Assembly: GCF_002775205.1 (NCBI RefSeq) | Contig: NC_036447.1 | Location: 28,394,245-28,458,244 of the forward strand | Length of the DNA: 64,000 bases | From: Xiphophorus maculatus | Lineage: Eukaryota; Chordata; Actinopteri; Cyprinodontiformes; Poeciliidae | Direction of reading: 5' to 3' | Shown: positions 11,071 to 60,482 of the stretch, one piece after another | Layout: every line of letters begins with the position of its first letter | Numbering within the stretch: position 1 is the first letter of the stretch | Translations under genes and position numbers: made by a program | The notes under the pieces: generated by a model | What the model saw: only the letters and a program-made list of their open reading frames with translations | Databases searched by the model: none | Told to the model about the DNA's origin: nothing

Positions 11071-12644
11071 ATGGCTCTGCTGAAGGTTCTGCTGCTGCTG
11101 CTGGGGCTGGGTGAGCGGACACACTGGAAACACTGGGCATACTGGAGACACTTCCTACTGGTTCCAGGGAGGCTGCTGCTCTCTGTAACTCTCAAACTTC
11201 CCCCTGATTCTGTTTCAGACTGAAACGTCTTTGCATATGAACTGTAATGCTTTTTAATCTTTAACTAATTATTCTTTTCTGTTCCTTCAGCCATGTTTGG
11301 ACCTGATTTCTGAGTGAAGTCCTCCTTTTTCTTCTTCAGGTGTTTCAGTGAACTCACATGTTTCTTTGCACAAGAGAATCATTGGAGGTCAAAACTGTGA
11401 TGACAAGGAGCGTCTTTATCATGTTCGGCTGGAGGGCAACAATGGTACTGAGACAACCTTGTGTGGAGGATCTCTGATCCACCCTGAGTGGATCCTGACT
11501 GCAGCTCACTGCTGGAAGTCGGAGCCAGGATGGTAGGAAAGAGTCATTCAGACAGTTTTATGAGCAGATGATCAGGTTTTCTATGTGTTCATTATAATCT
11601 AACCTGTTCTGCAGGACTACCACAGCAACGTTAGGAGTTCATCCACGGACTGCTACACAGGAGAAACAGATAATCCAACACAATCCAGTTATTTATGTTG
11701 ACCAATCGCATCAGCAGCATGACATCATGTTGCTGAAGCTTCAGAGACCAGTAAGAAATATCCGTCCTGCTCTGCTACCAAGATGCAATAATCGTATTAC
11801 AATGTAAGTCTTTCTCTGGTCAAAAACATGACTTCAGGTTTTCTGTTTCCACTCTTCCAGTCCTGCTGCCTCTGCTTCAGCACACCTGAGTCAGGTATTC
11901 AGTCCACCAGCAGAACCAGAACTTGTTTAGCTCAGATGTGTTGGACCAGAGACATGTGAAGGATGCACAACACTGTCACTGAGGACTGGAGGTGGACACT
12001 CCTATGTCTGTGGATGAAATCCTTCATGGATTTATTTTCTGTTCTTTCATTGTTCCTCCTAATGATTGAATTTCTACATTGTCATCATTTTTGACATTTA
12101 TCCTAATTGTGTTTCAGTGGTGCTACAGTTCAGCTGGCAGGAGAAGGATCAACGATAACCAGCCCCAATAATTTACGCTGTGAGAGAAATATTGAAGTTA
12201 TGAGAGTAAAATCTTTGGGTCTGTCTGTACAGAGAAGGTTAAGTGAAGAACTTTTATGATTCTCATGTTTCTCTGCAGCACTCGATGCTCCTATTCCACC
12301 ATATCTTCAGTGTGTCAACATGAAAGTTAGTGGTTTTTTCTTCGCGGCAACACGTGGGCATCTATTCATGGCTGAAGCAGAGAACAAGGATACGTGTCTT
12401 GTAAGTTTGTTTCGTCAATATTTCTCCACAGACAAGAGAAAAGAAAACGTTTCTGTTTTACAACATAAATATATTGTTATAAATTTTCCTACAGGGTGAC
12501 TCTGGTGGAGGAGTGGTGTTCAACAAGAAGATTTATGGTGTGATTGCTGACAGTGGAAAAGACCATGCATGTCAGAAACCAATTATTAGCATGGTTGTGT
12601 GTGAATACATGGAGTGGATAAGCAAAACAATTGGGCTTAAATAA
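11071..12644 (+). CDS. Trypsin-like S1A serine protease, copy A
   Basis: Six coding exons: 11071-11110, 11340-11532, 11615-11803, 12118-12179, 12279-12400 and 12495-12644; 251 residues. Signal peptide MALLKVLLLLLGLG, propeptide ending HKR, then IIGGQNC as the mature N-terminus, so activation is probably by cleavage after Arg15. The triad is visible as TAAHC (His57), HDIMLL (Asp102) and GDSGGG (Ser195). The S1 base KDTCL gives Asp189, predicting Lys/Arg specificity. Cys191 and Cys220 (HACQK) are both present, unlike copies B-J. Disulfides 22-157, 42-58 and 128-232 can form by position; those at 136-201 and 168-182 are absent. The canonical Ser214-Trp215-Gly216 appears as A-D-S. Exon 4 ends at GTGAGA, the only donor that keeps frame in all copies. 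A secreted protease is well supported; its physiological substrate is unknown. Confidence 0.9.
11848..12000. repeat. Decayed hAT-MITE relative in intron 3
   Basis: Ends resemble each other in inverse (TCCACT..TTCCAGTCCTG against the complement of GAGGACTGGAGGTGGA), and both halves contain the CACACCTGAG-type inner motif seen in the MITE at 8074. The same element sits in intron 3 of all ten protease copies, so it predates the array. No target duplication is left that I can define. Confidence 0.5.
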
Positions 12645-13571
12645 AACATAAACTATCATGAAAAAGTTTCATCAAATTTCCTCTCAGATGTAATTCTATA
12701 GTTATATCTTCATCAGTTTGTTCTACAAGTTTATAGAATTAGGATAAATTAATAGTTTTGTTTTTTCTCACCTGACCTTGACCTCCCTAATGGAGCTTTC
12801 TCTGCCTCAGAAATGAAAAAATAAATCAATAAATGAATGAAAAAGAATAATTTCCTGTCTGATCATCTTTACATTCATGGTTGAGTTTGTTCACTTGATA
12901 TTTTTCCTGAACTGAGTCTACAAACGTGACATGAGTTTTAAATCACATGACGAGGATCTCCAGAAGTAAATTTATTCAGTTTTTGTCTTTATTTTACATC
13001 AGAAATGAACATGCAGCATCTAAACTGTGCAGATCTGGAGAGACTATATATGATTTAGTTCTGGAGAACTTTAAACTCCAAGAGCTACAAAAAAATAATA
13101 AAACAGAAGTCACTTAATACAACAATTAATAATAAAACTCAAATAACTTAGAAATAAATAATAAAAACATCACATTTTAAGAAAGGAAATAAAAAGTTCA
13201 ATAATTAAAAACATTTTAAAAGTCCAATTCTAGAACGGAAGAAGTTTTATTGGGTTTATTTCTGGTTATCAGTGAGGAAAATAACAGACTTCCAATAAAA
13301 TATTGAGCATATTTTCAGTCTTAAAAGTTGTTAAACTGTCATTAAAGAAACAAAATCTAAAATCTGCATCAAACAGTTCATGTACAAAACAATAACATCT
13401 GCATGGATGTGGTGGACGTATTCTGATAAATTCTAACTTTTGAACACATTTTCTAATAACTTAAACTTTAGAAACATTAAATAGACAAACACTGAAACCT
13501 TTGCTGTTGTTGGAGAAGATCAGAGGGTCTTCTTGAAGTTTAGCCATGAGCTACATAATTAGTTAGTAAAC

Positions 13572-13771
13572 ATTTTCTTTTTAAAGGTTTTTTATTGGCT
13601 CTAGTGGCCTTTATTTGATAGTTAATTGACAGGAAAGTGGGTAATGAGAGAAGGGGGAAGACATGCGGCAAAGGTCACCAGGCCGGGAATGGAACCTGCG
13701 ACAGCCGCGACGAGGACTAAGGCCTCCTTATGTGGGTTGTGCTTAACCCCTGCGCCACCACAGCACATCCC
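13572..13771 (-). mobile_element. tRNA-derived SINE, copy 2
   Basis: A 200-bp SINE in reverse orientation with a perfect 15-bp duplication AATTAGTTAGTAAAC (13557-13571 and 13772-13786). The B-box-like stretch is seen in reverse near 13686-13700, and the tRNA-like head ends at the right with GCGCCACCACAGC. The same site in the B unit (near 20052-20066) is empty, so insertion followed the A/B duplication. Confidence 0.92.
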
Positions 13772-13849
13772 AATTAGTTAGTAAACTTAATATTTAGTTT
13801 AGTTGGTAAATAAATATTTTAATGGCAAGCATAAATGTGACATATTTAT

Positions 13850-17997: not shown

Positions 17998-19566
17998 ATG
18001 GCTCTGCTGAAGGTTCTGCTGCTGCTGCTGGGGCTGGGTGAGCGGACACACTGGAAACACTGGGCATACTGGAGACACTTCCTACTGGTTCCAGGGAGGC
18101 TGCTGCTCTCTGTAACTCTCAAACTTCCCCCTGATTCTGTTTCAGACTGAAACGTCTTTGCATATGAACTGTAATGCTTTTTAATCTTTAACTAATTATT
18201 CTTTTCTGTTCCTTCAGCCATGTTTGGACCTGATTTCTGAGTGAAGTCCTCCTTTTTCTTCTTCAGGTGTTTCAGTGAACTCACATGTTTCTTTGCACAA
18301 GAGAATCATTGGAGGTCAAAACTGTGATGACACGGAGCGTCTTTATCATGTTCGGCTGGAGGGCAACAATGGTACTGAGACAACCTTGTGTGGAGGATCT
18401 CTGATTCACCCTGAGTGGATCCTGACTGCAGCTCACTGCTGGAAGTCGGAGCCAGGATGGTAGGAAAGAGTCATTCAGACAGTTTTATGAGCAGATGATC
18501 AGGTTTTCTATGTGTTCATTATAATCTAACCTGTTCTGCAGGACTACCACAGCAACGTTAGGAGTTCATCCACGGACTGCTACACAGGAGAAACAGATAA
18601 TCCAACACAATCCAGTTATTTATGTTGACCAATCGCATCAGCAGCATGACATCATGTTGCTGAAGCTTCAGAGACCAGTAAGAAATATCCATCCTGTTCG
18701 GCTACCAAGATGCAATAATCGTGTTACGATGTAAGTCTTTCTCTGGTCAAAAACATGACTTCAGGTTTTCTGTCTCCACTTCTCTGGTCCTGCTGCCTCT
18801 GCTTCAGCACACCTGAGTCAGGTAATCAGGTCACCAGCAGAACCAGAACCTGTTTAGCTCAGGTGTGTTGGACCAGAGACATGTGAAGGATGCACGACAC
18901 CGTCACTGAGGACTGGAGGTGGACACTCCTGTGTCTGTGGATGAAATCCTTCATGGATTTATTTTCTGTTCTTTCATTGTTCCTCCTAATAATTCAATTT
19001 CTACATTGTCATCCTTTTTGACATTTATCCTAATTATGTTTCAGTGGTGCTACAGTTCAGCTGGCAGGAGAAGGTCCAACGACAATCGGCCCCAATAATC
19101 AGCGATGTGAGAGAAATATTGAAGTTATGAGAATAAAATCTTTGTTTCTGTCTGTACAGAGAAGGTTAAGTGAAGAACTTTTATGATTCTCATGTTTCTC
19201 TGCAGCACTCAGTGCTCCTCTTCTACCACATCTACAGTGTGTCGACATGATAGTTAGTGGTTTTTTCTTCGTGGCGACACGTGGGCATCTATTCTTTGCT
19301 GAAGCACTGAACAAGGATATGACTCTAGTAAGTTTGTTTCTTCAATATTTCTCCACAGACAAGAGAAAACTTTTCTGTTTTACAACATAAATACATTGTT
19401 ATAAATGTTCCTACAGGGTGACTCTGGTGGAGGAGTGGTGTTCAACAAGAAGATTTATGGTGTGATTGCTGGCAGTGGAAAAGACTATGCATTCCGTAAT
19501 CCAGTTATTAGCATGGTTGTGTGTGAATACATGGAGTGGATAAGCAAAACAATTGGGCTTAAATAA
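17998..19566 (+). CDS. Trypsin-like S1A serine protease, copy B
   Basis: Exons 17998-18037, 18267-18459, 18542-18730, 19045-19106, 19206-19327 and 19417-19566; 251 residues, stop TAA. Closest to A: the 37-loop (LEGNNGTETTL) and 99-loop (VDQSHQQH) are identical. It differs at the S1 base, KDMTL, so Asp189 stays but position 191 is Thr. Position 220 is Phe (YAFRN), so the 191-220 disulfide is gone. Residues 214-216 read A-G-S. All splice sites and the triad are intact, so it is probably functional, with a possibly weaker promoter. Confidence 0.88.
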
Positions 19567-23723: not shown

Positions 23724-25266
23724 ATGGCTCTGCTGAAGGTTCTGCTGCTGCTGCTGGGGCTGGGTGAGTCAGACACACTGGACACACTGGAAACACTGGA
23801 GACACTCCCAGTAGTTCCAGGTAGCTGCTCTTCTCTGTGACTGTCAAACTTCCCTCTGATTCTGTTTCAGACTGAAACTTCTTTGCATGTGAACTGTAAT
23901 GCTTTTTAATCTTTAACTGATTATTCTTTTCTGTTCCTTCAGCCATGTTTGGACCTGATTTTAGTGAAGTCCTCCTTTTTCTTCTTCAGGTGTTTCAATG
24001 AACTCACATGTTTCTCTGCACAAGAGAATCATTGGAGGTCAAAACTGTGATGACGAAGAGCGTCTTTATCATGTTCGGCTGCAAAGCAACAATGGTACTC
24101 AGGAGATCCCTTGTGGAGGATCTCTGATCCACCCTGAGTGGATCCTGACTGCAGCTCACTGCTGGAACTCTGAGCCAGGATGGTAGGAAAGAGTCATTCA
24201 GACAGTTTTATCTGCAGATGATCAGGTTTCCTATGTGTTCATTATAATCTAACCTGTTCTGCAGGACTACCATAGCAACTTTAGGAGTTCATCCACGGAC
24301 TGCTATACAGGAGAAACAGATAATCCAACACAATCCAGTTATTTATGTTGACCAATCGCATCAGCAGCATGACATCATGTTGCTGAAGCTTCAGAGACCA
24401 GTAAGAAATATCCATCCTGTTCGGCTACCAAGATGCAATAATCGTATTACGATGTAAGTCTTTCTCTGGTCAAAAACATGTCTTCAGGTTTTCTGTCTCT
24501 GCTTCAGCACACCTGAGTCAGGTAATCAGGCCACCAGCAGAACCAGAACCTGTTTAGCTCAGGTGTGTTGGACCAGAGACATGTGAAGGATGCAGGACAC
24601 CATCACTGAGGACTGGAGGTGGACACTCCTGTTTCTGTGGATGAAATGCTTCATGGATTTATTTTCTGTTCTTTCATTGTTCCTCCCAATGATTCATTTT
24701 CTACATTGTCATCATTTTTGACATTTATCCTTATTGTGTTTTAGTGGTGCTACAGTTCAGCTGGCAGGAGAAGGATCAACGATAACCGGCCCCAATAATT
24801 TACGCTGTGAGAGAAATATTGAAGTAGTGAGAATAAAATCTTTGTTTCTGTCTGTACAGAGAAGGTTAAGTGAAGAACTTTTATGATTCCCATGTTTCTC
24901 TACAGTACAAAGTGCTCCTCTTCCACCACATCTTCAGTGTGTCGACATGAAAGTTAGTGGTTTTGTCTTTAAGAAAACATATGGGCATGTATTCTTTGCT
25001 GAAGCACTGAACAAGGATGTGAATCTTGTAAGTTTGTTTCTTCAATATTTCTCCACAGACAAGAGAAAACTTTTCTGTTTTACAACATAAATATATTGTT
25101 ATAAATGTTCCTACAGGGTGACTCTGGTGGAGGAGTGGTGTTCAACAAGAAGATTTATGGTGTGATTGCTGGCAGTGGAAAAGACTATGCATTCCAGAAT
25201 CCAGTTATTAGCATGGTTGTGTGTGAATACATGGAGTGGATAAGCAAAACAATTGGGCTTAAATAA
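23724..25266 (+). CDS. Trypsin-like S1A serine protease, copy C
   Basis: Exons 23724-23763, 23990-24182, 24265-24453, 24745-24806, 24906-25027 and 25117-25266; 251 residues. The 37-loop is distinct (LQSNNGTQEIPC), exon 2 ends in HCWNSEPGW, and the 170-loop region reads VFKKTYGHVF. The S1 base is KDVNL (Asp189, Asn191) and position 220 is Phe (YAFQN). The triad is intact. It shares the GLK ending and the A-G-S at 214-216 with B, so it belongs to the A-C clade but has its own substrate-facing loops. Confidence 0.88.
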
Positions 25267-27708: not shown

Positions 27709-28910
27709 TAGCTGTGACACCAAGTGAAGCAAATATTGTAGCATGAGTTCTGCTTTATTTTCTCCTCATTCTGGTTCCTCTCTAAGGTGTTGTTCTGCCT
27801 TAATCAGTTTTTTTCATGTGTGACTGTCACCAGTATTAAATATTATGGTTATGTCAGCATGCAGCTGTGTGCGTGTGAGCAGATAAAGCAGAAAAGACAA
27901 AGAGTCCTGTTGTCCATAACAGTGTGTTCCTTATGAATTTCTTGTAACATTTTTGGTCTATAAAGTTACAAGATTCATAGTTTCTTCTAAGAAGGACATT
28001 TTAGTTCCATTAATCATTTTATTTTTCAAAACGTAGAAGCAGGACTTTTTTCTATTTTTTCATGTTCTTCCTTAACTTGATCTTTGTTAGTATATTAGCT
28101 CCACTTTACACCAAACTAACATTTAGCCACATAAAATACGTTTATGTTTTCAGTAGCAGATGAATATGTAATCACATCTCTAGTTAGTCAAATCACAGAC
28201 TGTTACTGGCTGGTTCGTGTTGTTACTCCACCCCACTGCTTCTCTCCCTTCTTCCTGGTTTCCTCATGGTCTCTTCATGTCTCTGGTTTGGGTTTATTTT
28301 TGTTCCTTGGACTTTGTTTTTTTATAAGTCTGATTTTTTAAATTTTAATCTACAACAGAACTTTAATTTTTCCCGCCTGCTGCATTTGGGTCCACACTTC
28401 TACCACAATGGAAGTCCAATGGTAATGCAATGGACTTTAAAGTCACTCTGTCCATTGTGGTCAGTTTGGAATGAATATATGTAATGAAAACATCTACATA
28501 TAAATTAAATAGTCTTTTAAGAACCACAATAAAGCTTAATTTGTTACAAAATAAAATGGCAACAATCCCTTATTTCCTTAAATCTTCAAGTAAAGAACTG
28601 AAATTTCAGAATGTTTTTACAGCCAAAATATTTGCTGGAAATGGGGCATATTGTAGATCTATAGTCAGAGTAATGACATCAATAAATACCTGTCAAAATA
28701 TTGCCACTGATGCATGACGTCCACTTTAGTGGACAGGTGATCAGCTGTAATTTCTCCAAATACAAAGTTGTTATTTGGGAACTACATCAATAGTCTTAGT
28801 CTTTCGGAGTTGCTTTATGTCACAATATATATTTTTTTAGCTGCAAGAGTTTTCTACAGTAGAAGGAGGGACTGAATATTCCTGATATGGTTGACATGCT
28901 TTTTCATCTG

Positions 28911-30514
28911 TGTTACGGCCCGGCTCGGATGGCCGCAAGAAAAAGTAGGGAGGACACGGCAAACCCAACGGGTTTTGTCTATATGCCTCAGGCACGAGTT
29001 CATAGGCTTTTTCCACTGCACTCTTCACCTTATCATAATGTAAACTGTCACCAGCTGACAGCGAGGCATAGGCTTCCTGTGCTTTACTGGTAAAAACGCA
29101 CTGCAAAAGCAGCGGCCAAACCTCCTGAGGCCACTTCAGTGTCTTTGCCACACGTTCAAACAAGATGAAATATTTATCCACATCCAACTCTGTAAACGGT
29201 GGAATCAAGCGAATGCATTTAGTTACGTCAAACTCCGCCCGCGCAGCACCACCATCCTGATCAACAGAAACACGCGCAGACTCACGTTTCGCAGCTGCCT
29301 CCAATTCCAATCTGCGCATCTCCACTTGATGGTGCAGCTCTCTCTCACGGAGCTCCAAACGACGCATTTCCAACTCCATCTCCATTTTACGTACCTCAGC
29401 GTTAGACGCCCCAACTTCACCCAGGGTGGTTGGTTCGGGAGGTGGCAAAATGTGTTGCTCAACCAACGCGGCATACAGTCGCCTTTTAATAACCTCCTTT
29501 TTCTCCTGTTTAACCACAGGTACTTCAAACTGAGCAGCAATAGCTATGAGATCGTTTTTAGTAGCAACACTAAACTTCTCCAAAGAAGGCTCAGCTACAA
29601 AATCGTACAGATCAAACTCCATTCTTAAGCAAAACGGTAATCGCACACCACAGGAAGAGAAAAAACAAGTGAAACTGCAAACACAGTGAAAAGTGAAAGT
29701 AAATTGAAACCAGTGCACAACGGGCCCAAAGTAATAATGTCCCCACTATACTTAACCTGCCTGCCACGACTCACCTGCCTAACTAATTCCTGGCACTTCA
29801 CGTGAATCGGCGGCGGGTTTATTAAGCACCTAACCAGTAAGAAATTAATCTTACGGATTGCCCCCGAGATCACTGCTTGCACAGTGAACACTAACCGCAA
29901 ACCCCCACGACACTACCAAAAAACAAACAGGTGAAGTCTAAAGCGACAGCACCTCTTAGCCTAGCAGGAGACACAATCACTAGAACAGAACCAACATCGA
30001 TGCACAAGCCCCAAAACATTCCACTCACCTGTATACCGGACCAATCTACCAAACAGGCCACAGCTGCCCACAACAAACAAACCGGTTAAGAAAGCCGCGT
30101 CCCACCTACAACGATGATGTCACTGAGTACTCCTACAAATAGGAAAAAGCTGAATGAAACACGCCATGCACTCGAACCAACAAATTTCCAAACTGTAGAA
30201 AGTTTGTTTTTGACGAGCCCCCATTTGTTACGGCCCGGCTCGGATGGCCGCAACAAAAAGTAGGGAGGACACGACAAACCCAACGGTTTTTAACCCCTTG
30301 CAAGGCATTTATTAAAAAACACAAGGTGTCAGCGCCGCCTCTGAGTCCAGATCTCGTCTGCTTCTGTTGTCAGCCAGCCAAACCCACATTGATGGAACGG
30401 CGCTCCTTATATACCATCCAGGTCTGGGAGGCACCTCCCACAATCAAGGACCTAATGGAAAAGCAGCCTGCACTATACAGCACACACATACAACAGCACC
30501 GCAGGGGCGTCACA
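28911..30514 (-). mobile_element. Ty3/Gypsy-like LTR fossil with gag piece
   Basis: Element from TGTTACGG to CGTCACA, with a perfect 5-bp duplication ATCTG (28906-28910 and 30515-30519). Minus orientation: a nearly whole 289-bp LTR lies at the right (30226-30514; TATA-like TATATAAGG and AATAAA on the minus strand). Beside it is a primer-binding-site-like TGGGGGCTCGTC (tRNA-Pro type, complement at 30212-30223), then a leader. A gag-like open region (about 29622-28981) has a Glu/Arg-rich coiled stretch and a SCAN/Gmr1-gag-like segment (RLIPPFTELDVDKYF, LKWP, YELVPEAYRQ). Only a short piece of the other LTR remains (28911-about 28977). Pol is absent; the element is internally deleted and broken. 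Confidence 0.85.
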
Positions 30515-31352: not shown

Positions 31353-32941
31353 ATGGCTCTGCTGAAGGTTCTGCTGCTGCTGCTGGGGCTGGGTGAGTCA
31401 GACACACTGGAAACACTGGGCATACTGGAGACACTTCCTACTGGTTCCAGGGAGGCTGCTGCTCTCTGTGACTCTCAAACTTCCCTCTAATTCTTTGTCA
31501 GACATAAACTTTATTGTAAATAAATTGTGATGCTTTTCAATCTTTATCTGTTCATCCTTTTTCTGTTCCTTCAGCCATGTTTGTTCCTAATTTCTGAATA
31601 AAGTCCTCTTTTTTTCCTCTTCAGGTGTTTCAATGAACTCACATGTTTCTCTGTACAAGAGAATCATTGGAGGTCAAAACTGTAATGACACGGAGCGTCT
31701 TTATCATGTTCGGCTGGAGGGCAACAATGGTACTCATACGACCTTTTGTGGAGGATCTCTGATCCACCCTGAGTGGATCCTGACTGCAGCTCACTGCTGG
31801 AAGTCGGAGCCAGGATGGTAGGAAAGAGTCATTCAGACAGTTTTATCTGCAGATGATCAGGTTTTCTATGTGTTCATTATAATCTAACCTGTTCTGCAGG
31901 ACTACCACAGCAAAGTTAGGAGTTCATCCACGGACTGCTACACAGCAGAAACAAATAATCCAACACAATCCTGTGATTTATTTTAACCAATGGCATAAAC
32001 GGCATGACATCATGTTGCTGAAGCTTCAGAGACCAGTAAGAAATATCAGTCCTGCTCTGCTACCAAGGTGCAATAATCGTATTACTATGTAAGTCTTTCT
32101 CTGGTCAAAAACATGACTTCAGGTTTTCTGTCTCCACTTCTCTGGTCCTTCTGCCTCTGCTTCAGCACACCTGAGTCAGGTAATCAGGCCACCAGCAGAA
32201 CCAGAACTTGTTTAGCTCAGGTGTGTTGGACCAGAGACATGTGAAGGACGCAGGACACCGTCACTGAGGACTGGAGGTGGACACTCCTGTGTCTGTGGAT
32301 GAAATCCTTCATGGATTTATTTTCTGTTCTTTCATTGTTCCTCCTAATTATTCATTTTCTACATTGTCATCATTTTTGACATTTATCCTAATTATGTTTC
32401 AGTGGTGCTACAGTTCAGCTGGCAGGACAGGGACCACCGACAACCAGCCGCAATCATCAGCGATGTGAGAGAAATATTGAAGTTTTGAGAATAAAATCTT
32501 TGTTTCTGTCGGTACAGAGAAGATTAAGAGAAGAACTTTTATGATTTTCATGTTTCTCTGCAGCACTCCGTGCTAGTGGTATTACACCACATCTTCAGTG
32601 TGTCGACTTGAAAGTTACTGGTTTTTTCTATTCGATTAAATCTGGGCATGAATTCCTTGCTGAAGCACAGAACAAGGATGCTAACTTTGTAAGTTTGTTT
32701 CTTCAATATTTCTCCACAGATAAAGGAAAACTTTCTGTTTTACAACATAAATATATTGTTATAAACTTTCCTGCAGGGTGACTCTGGTGGAGGAGTGGTG
32801 TTCAACAAGAAGATTGTTGGTCTGATTTCTCGCAGAGGAAAGAAGTATGCATTTCGGAATCCAATTTTTAGCATGGATGTGTGTGATTACTTGGAGTGGA
32901 TAAGAAACACAACTGGGCTTAATAAGCCTAAAATATCATGA
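31353..32941 (+). CDS. Trypsin-like S1A serine protease, copy D
   Basis: Exons 31353-31392, 31625-31817, 31900-32088, 32403-32464, 32564-32688 and 32777-32941; 257 residues. First member of the D-J clade: propeptide VSLYKR, C-terminus NKPKIS, and 214-215 read S-R. Exon 5 is one codon longer than in A-C. The 37-loop is LEGNNGTHTTF and the 99-loop FNQWHKRH, more basic than in A. S1 base KDANF, position 220 Phe (YAFRN). The triad is intact. Exon 4 has PPTTSRNHQR, shared only with copy I. Confidence 0.88.
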
Positions 32942-36115: not shown

Positions 36116-37703
36116 ATGGCTCTGCTGAAGGTTCTGCTGCTGCTGCTGGGGCTGGGTGAGTCAGACACACTGGAAACACTGGGCATACTGGAGACACTTC
36201 CTACTGGTTCCAGGGAGGCTGCTGCTCTCTGTGACTCTCAAACTTCCCTCTGATTCTTTGTCAGACATAAACTTTATTGTAAATAAATTGTGATGCTTTT
36301 CAATCTTTATCTGTTCATCCTTTTTCTGTTCCATCAGCCATGTTTGTTCCTAATTTCTGAATAAAGTCCTCTTTTTTTCCTCTTCAGGTGTTTCAATGAA
36401 CTCACATGTTTCTCTGTACAAGAGAATCATTGGAGGTCAAAACTGTAATGACACGGAGCGTCTTTATCATGTTCGGCTGGAGGGCGACAATGGTACTCAT
36501 ACGACCTTGTGTGGAGGATCTCTGATCCACCCTGAGTGGATCCTGACTGCAGCTCACTGCTGGAAGTCGGAGCCAGGATGGTAGGAAAGAGTCATTCAGA
36601 CAGTTTCATCTGCAGATGATCAGGTTTTCTATGTGTTCATTATAATCTAACCTGTTCTGCAGGACTACCACAGCAACGTTAGGAGTTCATCCACGGACTG
36701 CTACACAGGAGAAACAAATAATCCAACACAATCCTGTGATTTATGTTGACCAATCGCATCAGCAGCATGACATCATGTTGCTGAAGCTTCAGAGACCAGT
36801 AAGAAATATCCGTCCTGCTCTGCTACCAACATGCAATAATCGTCTTACGTTGTAAGTCTTTCTCTGGTCAAAAACATGACTTCAGGTTTTCTGTCTCCAC
36901 TTCTCCGGTCCTGCTGCCTCTGCTTCAGCACACCTGAGTCAGGTAATCAGGCCACCAGCAGAACCAGAACCTGTTTAGCTCAGGTGTGTTGGACCAGGAC
37001 ATATGAAGGATGCAGAACACCGTCACTGAGGACTGGAGGTGGACACTCCTGTGTCTGTGGATGAAATCCTTCATGGATTTATTTTCTGTTCTTTCATTGT
37101 TCCTCCTAATTATTCATTTTCTACATTGTCATCATTTTTGACATTTATCCTAATTGTGTTTCAGTGGTGCTACAGTTCAGCTGGCAGGAGATGGACTAAC
37201 GACAACCAGCCGCAATAATCAGCGATGTGAGAGAAATATTGAAGTTTTGAGAATAAAATCTTTGTTTCTGTCTGTACAGAGAAGATTAAGAGAAGAACTT
37301 TTATGATTTTCATGTTTCTCTGCAGCACTCCGTGCTAGTGGTATTACACTACATCTTCAGTGTGTCGACATGAAAGTTACTGGTTTTTTCTATTCGATTA
37401 AATCTGGGCATGAATTCTTTGCTGAAGCACAGAACAAGGATGCTAACTTTGTAAGTTTGTTTCTTCAATATTTCCCCACAAATAAAGGAAAACTTTCTGT
37501 TTTACAACATAAATATATTGTTATAAACTTTCCTGCAGGGTGACTCTGGTGGAGGAGTGGTGTTCAACAAGAAGATTGTTGGTGTGATTTCTAGCAGAGG
37601 AAAGAATTATGCATTTCGGAATCCAGTTTTTAGCATGGATGTGTGTGATTACTTGGAGTGGATAAGAAACACAACTGGGCTTAATAAGCCTAGAATATCA
37701 TGA
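36116..37703 (+). CDS. Trypsin-like S1A serine protease, copy E
   Basis: Exons 36116-36155, 36388-36580, 36663-36851, 37165-37226, 37326-37450 and 37539-37703; 257 residues. 37-loop LEGDNGTHTTL; 99-loop VDQSHQQH as in A-C although the rest is D-clade. Exon 4 reads GDGLTTTSRNNQR. S1 base KDANF; Phe220; C-terminus NKPRIS. The triad is intact. It is almost identical to copy F over the whole 4.27-kb unit, a recent duplication. Confidence 0.88.
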
Positions 37704-40385: not shown

Positions 40386-41974
40386 ATGGCTCTGCTGAAG
40401 GTTCTGCTGCTGCTGCTGGGGCTGGGTGAGTCAGACACACTGGAAACACTGGGCATACTGGAGACACTTCCTACTGGTTCCAGGGAGGCTGCTGCTCTCT
40501 GTGACTCTCAAACTTCCCTCTGATTCTTTGTCAGACATAAACTTTATTGTAAATAAATTGTGATGCTTTTCAATCTTTATCTGTTCATCCTTTTTCTGTT
40601 CCATCAGCCATGTTTGTTCCTAATTTCTGAATAAAGTCCTCTTTTTTTCCTCTTCAGGTGTTTCAATGAACTCACATGTTTCTCTGTACAAGAGAATCAT
40701 TGGAGGTCAAAACTGTAATGACACGGAGCGTCTTTATCATGTTCGGCTGGAGGGCGACAATGGTACTCATACGACCTTGTGTGGAGGATCTCTGATCCAC
40801 CCTGAGTGGATCCTGACTGCAGCTCACTGCTGGAAGTCGGAGCCAGGATGGTAGGAAAGAGTCATTCAGACAGTTTCATCTGCAGATGATCAGGTTTTCT
40901 ATGTGTTCATTATAATCTAACCTGTTCTGCAGGACTACCACAGCAACGTTAGGAGTTCATCCACGGACTGCTACACAGCAGAAACAAATAATCCAACACA
41001 ATCCTGTGATTTATGTTGACCAATGGCATCAGCAGCATGACATCATGTTGCTGAAGCTTCAGAGACCAGTAAGAAATATCCGTCCTGCTCTGCTACCAAC
41101 ATGCAATAATCGTCTTACGTTGTAAGTCTTTCTCTGGTCAAAAACATGACTTCAGGTTTTCTGTCTCCACTTCTCCGGTCCTGCTGCCTCTGCTTCAGCA
41201 CACCTGAGTCAGGTAATCAGGCCACCAGCAGAACCAGAACCTGTTTAGCTCAGGTGTGTTGGACCAGAGACATGTGAAGGATGCAGGACACCGTCACTGA
41301 GGACTGGAGGTGGACACTCCTGTGTCTGTGGATGAAATCCTTCATGGATTTATTTTCTGTTCTTTCATTGTTCCTCCTAATTATTCATTTTCTACATTGT
41401 CATCATTTTTGACATTTATCCTAATTGTGTTTCAGTGGTGCTACAGTTCAGCTGGCAGGAGATGGACTAACGACAACCAGCCGCAATAATCAGCGATGTG
41501 AGAGAAATATTGAAGTTTTGAGAATAAAATCTTTGTTTCTGTCTGTACAGAGAAGATTAAGAGAAGAACTTTTATGATTTTCATGTTTCTCTGCAGCACT
41601 CCGTGCTAGTGGTATTACACTACATCTTCAGTGTGTCGACATGAAAGTTACTGGTTTTTTCTATTCAATTAAATCTGGGCATGAATTCCTTGCTGAAGCA
41701 CAGAACAAGGATGCTAACTTTGTAAGTTTGTTTCTTCAATATTTCCCCACAAATAAAGGAAAACTTTCTGTTTTACAACATAAATATATTGTTATAAACT
41801 TTCCTGCAGGGTGACTCTGGTGGAGGAGTGGTGTTCAACAAGAAGATTGTTGGTGTGATTTCTAGCAGAGGAAAGAATTATGCATTTCGGAATCCAGTTT
41901 TTAGCATGGATGTGTGTGATTACTTGGAGTGGATAAGAAACACAACTGGGCTTAATAAGCCTAGAATATCATGA
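40386..41974 (+). CDS. Trypsin-like S1A serine protease, copy F
   Basis: Exons 40386-40425, 40658-40850, 40933-41121, 41436-41497, 41597-41721 and 41810-41974; 257 residues. Same exon 1, 2 and 4 products as E. Exon 3 differs in a short tract: CAGCAGAAACAA and an ACCAATGGCATC codon context give VDQWHQQH at the 99-loop, mixing D-like and E-like bases. Exon 5 reads FLAEA as in D rather than FFAEA as in E. KDANF, Phe220 and the triad are as in E. Confidence 0.88.
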
Positions 41975-44708: not shown

Positions 44709-46304
44709 ATGGCTCTGCTGAAGGTTCTGCTGCTGCTGCTGCTGCTGGGGCTGGGTGAGTCAGACACACTGGAAACACTGGGCATACTGGAGACACTTCC
44801 TACTGGTTCCAGGGAGGCTGCTGCTCTCTGTGCCTCTCAAACTTCCCTCTGATTCTTTGTCAGACATAAACTTCATTTCATATAGATTGTGATGCTTTTC
44901 AATCTTTATCTGTTCATCCTTTTTCTGTTCCATCAACCATGTTTACTCCTGATTTATGAATAAAGTCCTCTTTTTTTTCTTCTTCAGGTGTTTCAATGAA
45001 CTCACATGTTTCTCTGTACAAGAGAATCATTGGAGGTCAAAACTGTAATGACACAGAACGTCTTTATCATGTTCGGCTGGAGTTCGACAATGATACTCAT
45101 ATGAGCTTGTGTGGAGGATCTCTGATCCACCGTCAGTGGATCCTGACTGCAGCTCACTGCTGGAAGTCGGAGCCTGGATGGTAGGAAAGAGTCATTCAGA
45201 CAGTTTTATGAGCAGATGATCAGGTTTTTTATGTGTTCATTATAATCTAAGCTGTTCTGCAGGACTACCACAGCAAAGTTAGGAGTTCATCCACGGACTG
45301 CTACACAGGAGAAACAAATAATCCAACACAATCCTGTGATTTATGTTAACAAATGGCATTACCAGCATGACATCATGTTGCTGAAGCTTCAGAGGCCAGT
45401 AAGAAATATCCGTCCTGTTCGTCTACCAAGGTGCAATAATCGTATTACGATGTAAGTCTTTCTCTGGTCAAAAACATGATTTCAGGTTTTCTGTCTCCAC
45501 TTCTCCAGTCCTGTTGCCTCTGCTTCAGCACACCTGAGTCAGGTAATCAGGCCACCAGCAGAACCAGAACTTGTTTAGCTCAGGTGTGTTGGACCAGAGA
45601 CATGTGAAGGACGCAGGACACCGTTACTGAGGACTGGAGGTGGACACTCCTGTGTCTGTGGATGAAATCCTTCATGGATTTATTTTCTGTTCTTTCATTG
45701 TTCCTCCTAATTATTCATTTTCTACATTGTCATCATTTTTGACATTTATCCTAATTGTGTTTCAGTGGTGCTACAGTTCAGCTGGCAGGAGAAGGACTAA
45801 CAACAACCAGCCCCAATAATTCACTCTGTGAGAGAAATATTGAAGTTATGAGAGTAAAATCTTTGTTTCTGTCTATACAGAGAAGGTTTAGTGAAGAACA
45901 CTTTTATGATTTTCATGTTTCTCTGTAGCATTCGGTGCTTCTCTTCCACCACATCTTCAGTGTGTCGACATGAAAGTTACTGGTTTTTTCTTTACGATTA
46001 CATCTGGGCATGAATTCTTTGCTGAAGCACAGAACACAGATGCGTACTTTGTAAGTTTGTTTCTTCAATATTTCTCCACAGACAAAGGAAAACTTTTCTG
46101 TTTTACAACATAAATATATTGTTATAAACTTTCCTGCAGGGTGACTCTGGTGGAGGAGTGGTGTTCAACAAGAAGATTGTTGGTGTGATTTCTAGCAGAG
46201 GAAAGAGTGTTTCATTTCGGAATCCAGTTTTTAGCATGGATGTGTGTGATTACTTGGAGTGGATAAGAAACACAACTGGGCTTAATAAGCCTAAAATATC
46301 ATGA
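44709..46304 (+). CDS. Trypsin-like S1A serine protease, copy G
   Basis: Exons 44709-44754, 44988-45180, 45263-45451, 45766-45827, 45929-46050 and 46140-46304; 258 residues. The signal peptide has seven CTG codons in a row against five elsewhere, adding two Leu. 37-loop LEFDNDTHMSL and LIHRQW, 99-loop VNKWHYQH, exon 5 FFTITSGHEF, S1 base TDAYF, 220 region SVSFRN: a distinct specificity class shared with H and J. Asp189 and the triad are intact. The exon 5 acceptor is TAG rather than CAG. Upstream DNA is E/F type, so the gene is a hybrid. Confidence 0.88.
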
Positions 46305-50246: not shown

Positions 50247-51835
50247 ATGGCTCTGCTGAAGGTTCTGCTGCTGCTGCTGGGGCTGGGTGAGTCAGACACA
50301 CTGGAAACACTGGGCATACTGGAGACACTTCCTACTGGTTCCAGGGAGGCTGCTGCTCTCTGTGACTCTCAAACTTCTCTCTGATTCTTTGTCAGACATA
50401 AACTTCATTTCATGTAGATTCTGATGCTTTTCAATCTTTATCTGTTCATCCTTTTTCTGTTCCATCAGCCATGTTTGCTCCTGATTTATGAATAAAGTCC
50501 TCTTTTTTTTCTTCTTCAGGTGTTTCAATGGACTCACATGTTTCTCTGTACAAGAGAATCATTGGAGGTCAAAACTGTAATGACACGGAGCGTCTTTATC
50601 ATGTTCGGCTGGAGTTCGACAATGATACTCATATGAGCTTGTGTGGAGGATCTCTGATCCACCGTCAGTGGATCCTGACTGCAGCTCACTGCTGGAAGTC
50701 GGAGCCTGGATGGTAGGAAAGAGTCATTCAGACAGTTTATCTGCAGATGATCAGGTTTTCTATGTGTTCATTATAATCTAACCTGTTCTGCAGGACTACC
50801 ACAGCAAAGTTAGGAGTTCATCCACGGACTGCTACACAGGAGAAACAAATAATCCAACACAATCCTGTGATTTATGTTAACAAATGGCATTACCAGCATG
50901 ACATCATGTTGCTGAAGCTTCAGAGGCCAGTAAGAAATATCCGTCCTGTTCGTCTACCAAGGTGCACTAATCGTATTACGATGTAAGTCTTTCTCTGGTC
51001 AAAAACATGATTTCAGGTTTTCTGTCTCCACTTCTCTGGTCCTGCTGCCTCTGCTTCAGCACACCTGAGTCAGGTAATCAGGCCACCAGCAGAACCAGAA
51101 CTTGTTTAGCTCAGGTGTGTTGGACCAGAGACATGTGAAGGATGCAAGACACCGTTACTGAGGACTGGAGGTGGACACTCCTGTGTCTGTGGATGAAATC
51201 CTTCATGGATTTATTTTCTGTTCTTTCATTGTTCCTCCTAATTATTCACTTTCTACATTGTCATCATTTTTGACATTTATCCTAATTGTGTTTCAGTGGT
51301 GCTACAGTTCAGCTGGCAGGAGAAGGACTAATGACAACCAGCCCCAATAATTCACTCTGTGAGAGAAATATTGAAGTTATGAGAGTAAAATCTTTGTTTC
51401 TGTCTATACAGAGAAGGTTTAGTGAAGAACACTTTTATGATTTTCATGTTTCTCTGCAGCATTCGGTGCTTCTCTTCCACCACATCTTCAGTGTGTCGAC
51501 ATGAAAGTTACTGGTTTTTTCTTTACGATTACATCTGGGCATGAATTCTTTGCTGAAGCACAGAACACGGATGCGTACTTTGTAAGTTTGTTTCTTCAAT
51601 ATTTCTCCACAGACAAAGGAAAACTTTTCTGTTTTACAACATAAATATATTGTTATAAACTTTCCTGCAGGGTGACTCTGGTGGAGGAGTGGTGTTCAAC
51701 AAGAAGATTGTTGGTGTGATTTCTAGCAGAGGAAAGAGTGTTTCATTTCGGAATCCAGTTTTTAGCATGGATGTGTGTGATTACTTGGAGTGGATAAGAA
51801 ACACAACTGGGCTTAATAAGCCTAAAATATCATGA
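50247..51835 (+). CDS. Trypsin-like S1A serine protease, copy H
   Basis: Exons 50247-50286, 50520-50712, 50794-50982, 51297-51358, 51460-51581 and 51671-51835; 256 residues. Gene body of the G class (LEFDNDTHMSL, VNKWHYQH, TDAYF, SVSFRN), but the propeptide starts VSMDSH and exon 3 ends RCTNR, both unique. Exon 5 acceptor CAG. Triad and Asp189 intact. The upstream region lacks the LINE-tail and 541-bp LTR-like insertions, so H may represent the original setting of this gene class. Confidence 0.88.
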
Positions 51836-54520: not shown

Positions 54521-54564
54521 CAGGCCTGCAAGACTGCAGACATTCACAGGAAGCTGGACCAGCA

Positions 54565-56152
54565 ATGGCTCTGCTGAAGGTTCTGCTGCTGCTGCTGGGG
54601 CTGGGTGAGTCAGACACACTGGAAACACTGGGCATACTGGAGACACTTCCTACTGGTTCCAGGGAGGCTGCTGCTCTCTGTGACTCTCCAACTTCCCTCT
54701 AATTCTTTGTCAGACATAAACTTTATTGTAAATAATTTGTGATGCATTTCAATCTTTATCTGTTCATCCTTTTTCTGTTCCTTCAGCCATGTTTGCTCCT
54801 AATTTCTGAATAAAGTCCTCTTTTTTTCCTCTTCAGGTGTTTCAATGAACTCACATGTTTCTCTGCACAAGAGAATCATTGCAGGTCAAAACTGTGATGA
54901 CACGGAGCGTCTTTATCATGTTCGGCTGGAGGGCAGGAATGGTAATCATAAGAGATTGTGTGGAGGATCTCTGATCCACCCTGAGTGGATCCTGACTGCA
55001 GCTCACTGCTGGAAGTCGGAGCCAGGATGGTAGGAAAGAGTCATTCAGACAGTTTTATCTGCAGATGATCAGGTTTTCTATGTGTTCATTATAATCTAAC
55101 CCGTTCTGCAGGACTACCAAAGCAACGTTAGGAGTTCATCCACGGACTGCTACACAGCAGAAACAAATAATCCAACACAATCCTGTGATTTATCTTAACC
55201 AATGGCATAAACGGCATGACATCATGTTGCTGAAGCTTCAGAGACCAGTAAGAAATATCCGTCCTGCTCAGCTACCAAGATGCAATAATCGTCTTAGAAT
55301 GTAAGTCTTTCTCTGGTCAAAAACATGACTTCAGGTTTTCTGTCTCCACTTCTCCGGTCCTGCTGCCTCTGCTTCAGCACACCTGAGTCAGGTAATCAGG
55401 CCACCAGCAGAACCAGAACCTGTTTAGCTCAGGTGTGTTGGACCAGGACATATGAAGGACACAGGACACCGTCACTGAGGACTGGAGGTGGACACTCCTG
55501 TGTCTGTGGATGAAATCCTTCATGGATTTATTTTCTGTTCTTTCATTGTTCCTCCTAATTATTCATTTTCTACATTGTCATCATTTTTGACATTTATCCT
55601 AATTGTGTTGCAGTGGTGCTACAGTTCAGCTGGCAGGAGAGGGACCACCGACAACCAGCCGCAATCATCAGCGATGTGAGAGAAATATTGAAGTTTTGAG
55701 AATAAAATCTTTGTTTCTGTCTGTACAGAGAAGATTAAGAGAAGAACTTTTATGATTCTCATGTTTCTCTGCAGCACTCCGTGCTAGTGGTATTACACCA
55801 CATCTTCAGTGTGTCGACTTGAAAGTTACTGGTTTTTTCTATTCGATTAAATCTGGGCATGAATTCCTTGCTGAAGCACAGAACAAGGATGCTAACTTTG
55901 TAAGTTTGTTTCTTCAATATTTCCCCACAGATAAAGGAAAACTTTCTGTTTTACAACATAAATATATTGTTATAAACTTTCCTGCAGGGTGACTCTGGTG
56001 GAGGAGTGGTGTTCAACAAGAAGATTGTTGGTGTGATTTCTAGCAGAGGAAAGAATTATGCATTTCGGAATCCAGTTTTTAGCATGGATGTGTGTGATTA
56101 CATGGAGTGGATAAGAAACACAACTGGGCTTAATAAGCCTAGAATATCATGA
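54565..56152 (+). CDS. Trypsin-like S1A serine protease, copy I
   Basis: Exons 54565-54604, 54837-55029, 55112-55300, 55614-55675, 55775-55899 and 55988-56152; 257 residues. The mature N-terminus is IIAGQNC, so the usually invariant Gly18 is Ala. The 37-loop LEGRNGNHKRL is strongly basic and lacks the N-G-T glycosylation motif. 99-loop LNQWHKRH as in D; exon 4 PPTTSRNHQR as in D; C-terminus NKPRIS as in E/F. S1 base KDANF and Phe220. All splice sites and the triad are intact. Confidence 0.87.
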
Positions 56153-56543: not shown

Positions 56544-56944
56544 TGGATTCAACAAAATTTTCTTGCACTTGTGTGATGGCTGCAGGTTCAGACACACAAA
56601 TGTGGTAACATTCAATCACACCACACACAATTGTTCAGTCAGTCTCACCTCACTTATATTGTTTCTTTAAATCTTGGATTTAGTAGTGATGGGAAAACAA
56701 CACAGAAACCTCCGCACATGCTTCAGTTAGGTTTCTGTGTGTTCTCCCCTTTGTCTTCTATGTAACCTGATCAGCCAGTACTTATGTTTCCTCTTTGTAT
56801 TTCATTTAGATAGTTCTGTTTGTCTGTCTGAGTTGATTTCTGTTACTTTGACCTCTTTTATGGGCCCAATTTGGTCATTTTTACCTAAGTGTCTGTTTTG
56901 GGTTAAATAAAATACAATACTTTTTTAAATTTAACTTGTGCCTA

Positions 56945-57485
56945 CGTGGACAAAAATCTGTAGGATAACAGATCAGGCTGAGACTCTGGCAAATGGCAAA
57001 GAGCAAAGCTTTATTTCATCTGCAGACGGAGAACAAACACAGCGGCGAGCTGCTCTGAGTTCTGATTTGGAGCTGCAAGCCCTCACAATATATAGAACTC
57101 ATGTTACACAATGTGGTCACTCCAGTTTCAGTTGAACAATATACAAGCCACGTAACCACACTGGAGGGTCAGTTAGCTCCTGGGATGATAAATCTTCTTG
57201 TTCAAATATGTGAGTTTCCAAAAATCAGGTTTGATAATGGAACAATTTTACATAACAAGAACATTGTCAAACCAGAATATCCAGCAGGTGCACCAAACTC
57301 TTAACACTTTGAGCTGGTGATTTTCCATAGAGAAACTTCTTAAGCCTCAGAGCTTCTATCTAAACTATCTGTTCTTTTCTGTTAACAAATTCTGGCGTCT
57401 TGCTGTCGCTATCAGCCTGCTGCAGTGGCTGCAGGGACCCCTCTGACTGGTTCTGCAGAAACTCTCTAGCCTACATACTTTAACA
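56945..57485 (-). mobile_element. LTR-like fossil (541 bp), upstream of J
   Basis: Duplicate of 34234-34774. Confidence 0.5.
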
Positions 57486-58134
57486 GGTTGAACAACACTA
57501 ATGTGGTTAAATGAGTAAAAGAATTAATCAAAATTGTTAAGAGACATAATAAACTATTTTTACTTCACAAACGTTTTCTCTCACACTTTTGGAAAACAGT
57601 TAACAGTTAAACAGTTAACAGATGTCATTCAACCAGTGAAAACTTCATTATTTATAGCAACCAAAGAGAAACCAGATTTTCTTTCTTACCCACTTCACGT
57701 TGCATGCATCAGTATGAATCAATGAAGCTGCTGTTTCACTTCCCAAAAAAAAACTCTTAAAAAAATTATGCAAAGGCAGTTTTCAAAACTTGTACATTGG
57801 AAGCCAAACAGTTTTTTTGTAAAAAAAAAAAATAAAATAAACATCAACATGGAAACAAGGAGTCTCTCTTCCTTCAGAAAATCAGTTATATTTTATCAAG
57901 TTTTCCATTGTGCAAAACTCACTGCAAGCTTGTGCAAAAACAGAAAATTTACCAATTATTTTTAGTCTAGTTTCTAGTGTAAACCTCTCAGTTCACTTAA
58001 GAAAAGGCAAAACTACCATATAAATAACTTTGTAACAAAATATAGGAGCTACTTGGTTTAAGTCAATTCCTTAATATTGATGACCAGGTTATTGTTTAAT
58101 TTGCTAATTATTTAAGTTACAGGAGGGGTAAATG

Positions 58135-58572
58135 ATACGATAGATAAGATAAGATAAGATAAATCTTTATTGTCATTGTCACAAGAACAACGAAATTCAA
58201 AAGGTGCCATCAGTCAGTGCACATCCCAAAAACAAAAAATAACTGTCTCACAATTCACACACAACGCAAGAATCAACAAACAACTGGCAAAAATCAAACA
58301 AACAAACAAAAAAAAAACACTAAATAAGAACAGCCACATTCTCACATACATCATTTATGATGATTCATGGTTGTTTTTGATTGCATTTAGTTTTGTTATG
58401 GCTATTGGGTAGAAACTGTCTCTGAGACGATTGGTTCTTGTTCTGATTGCTCTGTATCTTCTGCCTGAAGGCAGCAGTGTGAACAGAGAATGCCTGGGGT
58501 GAGAAGTGTCCTTTGTGATGTGTTGTGCTTTTCTTAGACAGTGGTCTCTGTGCTAACAGCTGTGCACTAATA
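58135..58572 (-). mobile_element. LINE-tail insertion in J 5' region
   Basis: Duplicate of 35422-35846 with AAATG flanks and one more GATAA unit in the tail. Confidence 0.65.
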
Positions 58573-58690
58573 AAATGTTTTATTAGTGAAATAATCTATC
58601 AATGGAATAAGAACTTTTTTCAAATTTCTTTAGAAAGATGAGTTACTAAAGTTCTTATGTATGCAGATGACCCCAAAAATCACTGTCCAT

Positions 58691-58851
58691 CATGTCATTG
58701 GACATATCAGTGTCCATCCTGTGATTGGACAGATCAGTGCCCGTACTGTGATTGGACAGATCAGTGTCCGTCCTGTGATTGGACAGATCAGTGCCCGTAC
58801 TGTGATTGGTGGCTTCCTGCCCAGCAGGAAGTTGTGAACAAAGTTTAAAAG
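58691..58851 (+). promoter_or_regulatory. Promoter of copy J, five CCAAT units
   Basis: ATTGG at 58697, 58724, 58751, 58778 and 58805; TTTAAAAG at 58844-58851. Identical layout to G. Confidence 0.66.
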
Positions 58852-58893
58852 CTGGTGCAGGACTGTAGACATTCACAGGAAGCTGGACCAGCA

Positions 58894-60482
58894 ATGGCTC
58901 TGCTGAAGGTTCTGCTGCTGCTGCTGGGGCTGGGTGAGTCAGACACACTGGAAACACTGGGCATACTGGAGACACTTCCTACTGGTTCCAGGGAGGCTGC
59001 TGCTCTCTGTGCCTCTCAAACTTCCCTCTGATTCTTTGTCAGACATAAACTTCATTTCATATAGATTGTGATGCTTTTCAATCTTTAACTGTTCATCCTT
59101 TTTCTGTTCCATCAACCATGTTTACTCCTGATTTATGAATAAAGTCCTCTTTTTTTTCTTCTTCAGGTGTTTCAATGAACTCACATGTTTCTCTGTACAA
59201 GAGAGTCATTGGAGGTTAAAACTGTAATGACACAGAACGTCTTTATCATGTTCGGCTGGAGTTCGACAATGATACTCATATGAGCTTGTGTGGAGGATCT
59301 CTGATCCACCGTCAGTGGATCCTGACTGCAGCTCACTGCTGGAAGTCGGAGCCTGGATGGTAGGAAAGAGTCATTCAGACAGTTTATCTGCAGATGATCA
59401 GGTTTTCTATGTGTTCATTATAATCTAAGCTGTTCTGCAGGACTACCACAGCAAAGTTAGGAGTTCATCCACGGACTGCTACACAGGAGAAACAAATAAT
59501 CCAACACAATCCTGTGATTTATGTTAACAAATGGCATTACCAGCATGACATCATGTTGCTGAAGCTTCAGAGGCCAGTAAGAAATATCCGTCCTGTTCGT
59601 CTACCAAGGTGCAATAATCGTGTTACGATGTAAGTCTTTCTCTGGTCAAAAACATGATTTCAGGTTTTCTGTCTCCACTGCTCCAGTCCTGTTGCCTCTG
59701 CTTCAACACACCTGAGTCAGGTAATCAGGCCACCAGCAGAACCAGAACTTGTTTAGCTCAGGTGTGTTGGACCAGAGACATGTGAAGGACGCAGGACACC
59801 GTTACTGAGGACTGGAGGTGGACACTCCTGTGTCTGTGGATGAAATCCTTCATGGATTTATTTTCTGTTCTTTCATTGTTCCTCCTAATTATTCATTTTC
59901 TACATTGTCATCATTTTTGACATTTATCCTAATTGTGTTTCAGTGGTGCTACAGTTCAGCTGGCAGGAGAAGGACTAACGACAACCAGCCCCAATAATTC
60001 ACTCTGTGAGAGAAATATTGAAGTTATGAGAGTAAAATCTTTGTTTCTGTCTATACAGAGAAGGTTTAGTGAAGAACACTTTTATGATTTTCATGTTTCT
60101 CTGTAGCATTCGGTGCTTCTCTTCCACCACATCTTCAGTGTGTCGACATGAAAGTTACTGGTTTTTTCTTTACGATTACATCTGGGCATGAATTCTTTGC
60201 TGAAGCACAGAACACGGATGCGTACTTTGTAAGTTTGTTTCTTCAATATTTCTCCACAGACAAAGGAAAACTTTTCTGTTTTACAACATAAATATATTGT
60301 TATAAACTTTCCTGCAGGGTGACTCTGGTGGAGGAGTGGTGTTCAACAAGAAGATTGTTGGTGTGATTTCTAGCAGAGGAAAGAGTGTTTCATTTCGGAA
60401 TCCAGTTTTTAGCATGGATGTGTGTGATTACTTGGAGTGGATAAGAAACACAACTGGGCTTAATAAGCCTAAAATATCATGA
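58894..60482 (+). pseudogene. Serine protease copy J, nonsense-mutated
   Basis: Exons by homology: 58894-58933, 59167-59359, 59441-59629, 59944-60005, 60107-60228 and 60318-60482. Gene body of the G/H class with all splice sites, triad codons and TDAYF intact. In exon 2 the codon for Gln20 reads TAA (59217-59219; CAA in every other copy), stopping translation right after VIGG, and the mature N-terminus is VIGG rather than IIGG. With a stop at residue 31 or so of about 256, no protease can be made unless the stop is a polymorphism or sequencing error. The absence of other damage means the loss is recent. Confidence 0.85.

What the first reader, a model, noticed from the sequence alone, without database searches (positions are those of the whole stretch)
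11071..60482. Both partners of the Cys191-Cys220 disulfide lost together in nine of ten copies
Copy A has Cys at both positions (KDTCL before GDSGGG; HACQK after). B-J carry Thr, Asn or Tyr/Asn at 191 and Phe at 220 in every case. This disulfide frames the S1 pocket and is nearly universal in trypsin-fold proteases, so paired loss across a whole expansion suggests selection for a more open or flexible pocket while Asp189 is kept. The residues are read directly; numbering comes from alignment by eye to trypsin.
Basis: partly seen in the sequence, partly recalled or inferred. Interest (0 to 1): 0.8.

Follow-up and report, generated by a model that had tools for sequence, protein, structure and literature searches.

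The report
Fish proteases missing a pocket disulfide
Ten neighbouring digestive-enzyme-like genes of a platyfish really do show, in nine copies, the loss of both halves of a chemical bridge beside the substrate pocket, but similar losses are known in mammals and occur scattered in related fish genes, so this is a fresh fish example of a known kind of change and not proof of a purposeful redesign.

Summary
The residues are as reported. Ten tandem six-exon S1A protease genes of Xiphophorus maculatus were modelled. Copy A equals a deposited protein and has Cys at both sites; B-J have Thr, Asn or Tyr at 191 and Phe at the loop site. Copy J has an in-frame stop. 191 aligns with trypsin Cys191. The loop Cys aligns about three residues past trypsin Cys220, but co-occurrence and cysteine counts make it the likely partner of 191.

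A single loss is neither shown nor rejected. In related poeciliid genes loss recurs and includes unpaired states. Asp189 is kept as often in relatives with a broken catalytic triad, and 216/226 are not Gly, so Asp189 does not imply a trypsin pocket. Exons 4-6 diverge faster than introns 3-5 between the older copies, which is not tied to the disulfide as such.

Loss of this bond is known from mammalian chymase-locus proteases. The fish case differs: two other disulfides were already absent, leaving three. It is a new variant of a known kind.

The parts
11071..12644 (+). Copy A, six exons: 11071-11110, 11340-11532, 11615-11803, 12118-12179, 12279-12400, 12495-12644; Cys/Cys; codons 12395-12397 and 12570-12572 both TGT
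   Evidence: product identical to P0001
17998..19566 (+). Copy B, Thr191 (19322-19324 ACT), Phe (19492-19494 TTC)
23724..25266 (+). Copy C, Asn191 (25022-25024 AAT), Phe (25192-25194 TTC)
31353..32941 (+). Copy D, Asn191 (32683-32685 AAC), Phe (32852-32854 TTT)
36116..37703 (+). Copy E, Asn191 (37445-37447 AAC), Phe (37614-37616 TTT)
40386..41974 (+). Copy F, Asn191 (41716-41718 AAC), Phe (41885-41887 TTT)
44709..46304 (+). Copy G, Tyr191 (46045-46047 TAC), Phe (46215-46217 TTT)
50247..51835 (+). Copy H, Tyr191 (51576-51578 TAC), Phe (51746-51748 TTT)
54565..56152 (+). Copy I, Asn191 (55894-55896 AAC), Phe (56063-56065 TTT)
58894..60482 (+). Copy J, Tyr191 (60223-60225 TAC), Phe (60393-60395 TTT); in-frame stop in exon 2 (59167-59359)

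Best explanation
Shown: ten tandem S1A protease genes of the platyfish. The relatives sampled lack Cys at the positions of two trypsin disulfides (136-201 and 168-182) and mostly keep eight cysteines, which fit four bonds: 22-157, 42-58, 128-232 and 191-loop. In copies B-J and six near relatives the cysteines of the last pocket bond are gone, leaving six as a rule, while His57, Asp102 and Ser195 remain. Inferred: in diversifying exons 5-6 one cysteine was lost, the orphan partner was then free or favoured to change, and a loop motif (Y-A-F-R/Q-N-P) is shared by B, C, D-F and I by descent or gene conversion. The result is probably an active protease whose 217-225 loop is held by packing (Phe, Val/Ile226) and not by a bond, which would work like the mammalian graspases. 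Its specificity is unlikely to be plain trypsin-like.
For: Gene models and residues. Cys at 136, 168, 182 and 201 in 0 of 127 rows (182 falls in a gap in all 127); cysteine count 8 in 69 of 100 both-Cys rows and 6 in 17 of 18 rows lacking both. Pairing by co-occurrence, 104/18/4/1, Fisher 4e-17 without correction for kinship. Intermediates exist: P0115 Cys/Phe beside P0119 Ser/Phe, and P0006 Gly/Cys next to the window clade. Codon 191 states TGT, TAC, AAC, AAT and ACT are joined by short steps (codons; the steps are my reading). Mosaic segment distances, such as A-B intron 1 at 0.0% but exon 4 at 14.5% while A-C exon 4 is 1.6%, point to conversion or recombination. Nonsynonymous divergence of exons 4-6 exceeds introns 3-5 in two comparisons on separate tree paths: A-B p 0.004, D-G p 2.5e-5. 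Position 191 is one of 8 of 259 columns with four or more residues among the ten copies.
Against: The kinship-aware pairing test has too few events (median p 0.25 and 0.5). No distance between the two sulphurs could be read from the model, so the bond in copy A is inferred. Tree nodes that decide one loss against two are weak, and the exon 5-6 tree does not hold A, B and C together. dN/dS in exons 4-6 is not uniformly above 1 (A-B 0.91, B-C 0.64, B-G 1.02), exon dS is above intron divergence in several pairs, and the youngest pairs E-F, G-H and G-J show no excess, so part of the exon excess may come from mosaic ancestry and not selection. Activity, expression and substrate are untested.
Confidence: 0.6

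Rival explanations
1. One reading: paired loss was itself selected because a more open S1 pocket, with Asp189 kept, serves a new trypsin-like use.
For: Fast exons 4-6 and four residues at 191; triad intact; looser predicted loop without the pair.
Against: Asp189 is equally kept in triad-broken relatives (77 of 80). 216 is Ser or Arg and 226 is Val or Ile. Unpaired and scattered losses occur in relatives. One ancestral loss is not shown.
Confidence: 0.15
2. Relaxed constraint: the copies are on the way to being non-catalytic, like most of the relatives sampled, and the disulfide loss is decay.
For: 80 of 117 non-window relatives have a changed triad residue; J carries a stop.
Against: Nine of ten window frames are open and ten of ten models keep H/D/S. 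Triad-broken relatives mostly keep the cysteine pair (74 of 80), so loss of catalysis and loss of the bond do not go together. Decay predicts dN near intron divergence, not above it. Whole-gene dN/dS is 0.30 in the young pairs G-H and G-J, though 0.94 in E-F and 0.76 in H-J.
Confidence: 0.2
3. Assembly or annotation artefact.
For: E and F are nearly identical, and some deposited models of this family seem mis-spliced.
Against: Copy A matches a deposited protein exactly. X. couchianus rows P0002-P0004, P0007 and P0008 and Gambusia P0009 show corresponding states.
Confidence: 0.03

Closest known systems
Graspases (mammalian chymase-locus type proteases; granzyme B/H, chymase, cathepsin G and duodenase as members is recalled)
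   Same: S1A proteases that lack the Cys191-Cys220 bond (chymase-locus enzymes: PMC4646688 passage; the 2003 graspase paper was seen only as a reference in PMC6096847). Duodenase, granzymes B, C and H, chymase and cathepsin G are near the top of the structural list for both models, tied within 1 Z with several others.
   Different: Window genes keep Asp189 and lack Cys at 136, 201, 168 and 182, bonds that graspases keep (recalled); they carry 22-157 and 128-232, assigned by alignment and elimination. Phe sits at the loop side, not at 191 (graspase Phe191 recalled). The loss lies within a fish expansion.
Vertebrate trypsin (rat trypsin II 1co7, fish trypsin 1a0j)
   Same: Fold, triad and Asp189; trypsins head the sequence matches in the PDB set.
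   Different: Gly216 and Gly226 replaced; Pro198 is Gly; Trp215 replaced; cysteines for only three (B-J) or four (A) of six disulfides.
Fish chymase-locus-related proteases of a 2015 survey (PMC4646688, passages only)
   Same: Fish S1A expansions; the paper remarks that the fish enzymes have the Cys191-Cys220 bridge.
   Different: Whether the window belongs to that locus was not tested. The window copies would be an exception to that remark if it does.

Membership tests
Peptidase S1A (trypsin fold) | Pfam Trypsin domain over the mature chain | tested here: met
   PF00089, 110.9 bits against cut-off 20.6; copy A, typed with one wrong residue; only copy A was scanned
Peptidase S1A (trypsin fold) | His57, Asp102, Ser195 and an Ile16-type N terminus | tested here: met
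   10 of 10 window models keep H/D/S; IIGG, IIAG or VIGG after KR in the models; J is cut by a stop
Trypsin-specific S1 pocket | Asp189-Gly216-Gly226 | tested here: not met
   Asp189 kept; 216 Ser or Arg, 226 Val or Ile in 10 of 10; the triplet as criterion from PMC6096847 (passage)
Graspases | No Cys191-Cys220 bond | tested here: met
   Both Cys absent in 9 of 10 copies; not met by copy A
Graspases | Retains 42-58, 136-201 and 168-182 (recalled) | tested here: not met
   42 and 58 are Cys, but 0 of 127 rows have Cys at 136, 168, 182 or 201
[quoted passage not shown]
   No mammalian chymase-locus sequence was put in the trees
Catalytically dead S1 homologues | A triad residue replaced | tested here: not met
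   0 of 10 window models; 80 of 117 relatives do

The most novel reading that the evidence does not exclude
A lineage of active S1A proteases that has dispensed with all three disulfides internal to the substrate-pocket barrel (136-201, 168-182, 191-220), arising inside a fish family in which most sampled members have lost a catalytic residue, with diversifying selection acting on the freed pocket loops.
Probability: 0.3. Interest if true: 0.6.

Novelty: new variant of a known kind. Interest (0 to 1): 0.4.

Why it matters
It gives a natural series (Cys/Cys, Cys/Phe, Gly/Cys, Ser/Phe, Tyr/Phe, Asn/Phe, Thr/Phe, and a relocated Cys) within related genes, so the order and cost of losing a pocket disulfide can be tested directly. 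It also shows a large poeciliid protease family in which the cysteine pair usually outlives the catalytic residues.

Tried and rejected
Rejected: nearly universal bond as an argument. Rejected: Asp189 retention as evidence of trypsin specificity. Not settled: one loss or two. The losers-as-one-clade tree has AU p 0.215 (28 rows: 10 window, 18 of the 120 proteins then held), and 0.055 for exons 1-4 and 0.162 for exons 5-6 (24 rows each: 10 window, 14 of 135). The A+B+C clade is in the best tree of the whole protein (87/93) and, weakly, of exons 1-4 (55/87); it is not in the exon 5-6 tree but not rejected there (p 0.142). In the exon 1-4 tree P0006 falls with D-J. The kinship-aware pairing test was not significant. 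Rows dropped before counting: 18 of 135 fetched proteins (a duplicate of A, and partial or mis-spliced models), plus rat trypsin, 15 of 120. P0005, almost the same as copy C, was kept as a relative. P0114 was scored Cys/Met through a one-column shift and counted as having a loop Cys. P0047, P0048 and P0053 lack Cys at the family column but have one near 216; counted as lacking it and as having a loop Cys. Each protein search listed 120 of its hits (of 1721, 1372 and 185); the species printed were of Xiphophorus, Gambusia, Poecilia and Poeciliopsis, so other teleosts were not sampled. The AlphaFold tool gives no coordinates, so no S-S distance. Its lower loop confidence for P0005 (block 221-230 mean 54 against 78 in A, the two numberings two residues apart) is weak, as most rows of the alignment carry the pair. 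Rows of the structure lists within 1 Z are tied. NCBIfam gave only one match, far below its cut-off, to a bacterial esterase model (E 4e-5, 1e-4 and 1e-7). Searches of print for this poeciliid family and for the bond listed none whose title or abstract start describes this loss in these fish; five papers were opened, by passage search only, and the library is partial. The whole-genome search did not complete.

Full report

The two sites. Codon 191 is TGT in A, ACT in B, AAT in C, AAC in D, E, F and I, and TAC in G, H and J; the loop codon is TGT in A, TTC in B and C, TTT in D-J. Position 191 aligns without doubt. The loop cysteine does not align with trypsin Cys220: the phmmer, profile and MAFFT alignments shown run ungapped from Gly211 to Cys232 for copy A or the family profile and put it about three residues later. 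It is nevertheless the probable partner. In 127 rows (10 window, 117 relatives) 104 have Cys at 191 and in the loop, 18 have neither, 4 only 191, 1 only the loop (Fisher 4e-17, kinship ignored). Both-Cys rows most often have 8 cysteines (69 of 100) and neither-rows 6 (17 of 18). With the other six at the 22, 42, 58, 128, 157 and 232 positions (128 by elimination; rat trypsin is gapped there), these two are left to pair. A kinship-aware test had only about five usable pairs and was not significant, though no pair went the other way.

A family already short of disulfides. None of the 127 rows has Cys at 136, 168, 182 or 201 (182 falls in a gap). So the bond 191-loop is the last one within the pocket barrel in these rows, and B-J have none there.

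History. The whole-protein trees place A with its X. couchianus counterpart P0002 beside B and C, with D-J and Gambusia P0009 as another group, though P0009's place is open. This order means either two losses, or one loss with the ancestral patch kept or restored in A by conversion. The exon 5-6 tree alone does not hold A, B and C together. Holding all losers as one clade is not rejected (p 0.215; 0.055 and 0.162 for the two halves). B, C, D-F and I share Y-A-F-R/Q-N-P around the loop Phe, G, H and J have V-S-F-R-N-P, and A has H-A-C-Q-K-P; segment distances are mosaic. Gambusia P0009 has Tyr/Phe, and Glu at 189, so the loss is older than Xiphophorus if the grouping holds. Outside this clade both cysteines are missing in P0070, P0090 and P0119; P0059, P0108, P0115 and P0134 keep 191 alone; and P0006, close to the window clade, keeps the loop Cys alone. 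P0115 and P0119 are sisters with Cys/Phe and Ser/Phe, which fits a loop-first order. In P0047, P0048 and P0053 a Cys near 216 stands in for the loop Cys.

Selection. In exons 4-6 nonsynonymous divergence is 0.11-0.23 per site in A-B, D-G, A-E and C-G, against 0.03-0.06 in introns 3-5. The excess is clear in A-B (p 0.004) and D-G (p 2.5e-5), which use separate paths of the tree, and no significant excess is seen in exons 1-3 of the three pairs tried (A-B lower, p 0.018; D-G p 0.11; A-E p 0.07). Against a simple reading: dN/dS in exons 4-6 is 0.91 in A-B and 0.64 in B-C, exon dS is also above intron divergence in several pairs, and the youngest pairs E-F, G-H and G-J show no excess, so mosaic ancestry may add to it. 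Position 191 is one of 8 of 259 columns with at least four residues among the ten copies. This supports diversification of the pocket-forming exons, not selection for loss of the bond as such.

Pocket. Asp189 is present in ten of ten copies, but also in 77 of 80 relatives with a changed triad and 34 of 37 with an intact one. Trypsin specificity is tied to Asp189 with Gly216 and Gly226 (PMC6096847, passage). The window has Ser or Arg at 216 and Val or Ile at 226. An open trypsin pocket is therefore unlikely. The predicted loop is less certain in P0005 than in A (block 221-230 mean pLDDT 54 against 78, numbering two residues apart), a weak hint of flexibility.

Known kind. PMC4646688 (passages only) says the fish proteases it studied have the bridge Cys191-Cys220, lacking in mammalian chymase-locus proteases, and links its absence to larger, open and flexible sites. 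The name graspases comes from the title of a 2003 paper that I saw only in a reference list. The fish genes resemble that group at this bond but are not filed with it, because the other bonds differ and descent was not tested.

Verdict. The adaptive reading is possible but unproven. The most telling new point is that the cysteine pair usually survives in relatives that lost a catalytic residue (74 of 80) and is gone in a clade that kept all three.

Noticed in passing
Relatives among P0002-P0134 (alignment): 80 of 117 non-window relatives have at least one changed catalytic-triad residue (Ser195 to Ala, Thr, Asp, Val, Tyr and others; His57 to Thr, Arg and others), yet 74 of these 80 keep the 191-loop cysteine pair: apparently a large poeciliid pseudoprotease radiation.
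   Followed up: partly
P0047, P0048, P0053: Cys191 kept, family loop Cys replaced by Phe or Leu, and a new Cys near position 216: a possibly relocated disulfide.
   Followed up: partly
Alignment columns 289 and 382: Ten rows have an extra Cys before Gly in exon 5, and six of them also have one near 216, as if an additional bond had been gained.
   Followed up: no
window 12118-12644 and the matching exons of the other copies: Exons 4-6 diverge more than introns 3-5 between the older copies.
   Followed up: partly
window 59167-59359: Copy J has an in-frame stop in exon 2.
   Followed up: yes
window 2638-3162 and 4572-4886: Open frames upstream of the array with immunoglobulin-domain matches, the first just below Pfam's cut-off, the second above it; a published survey puts fish chymase-like genes next to CD276 in platyfish. 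Identity not tested.
   Followed up: no
window 28837-29745: 302-residue open frame on the minus strand between copies C and D with no Pfam match at E 0.01.
   Followed up: partly
P0010, P0012, P0013, P0017, P0038, P0071: Deposited models for this family that seem to run through wrong splice sites before the GDSGG exon.
   Followed up: no
All 48 rows of alignment A1, residues 25-26: The dibasic KR before the mature N terminus is invariant, unlike the DDDDK of trypsinogen seen in the rat chain.
   Followed up: no
PMC4338968: An anionic trypsin-2-like gene is reported higher in the ventral (sword) than the dorsal caudal fin of a swordtail (passage); which copy is unknown.
   Followed up: no
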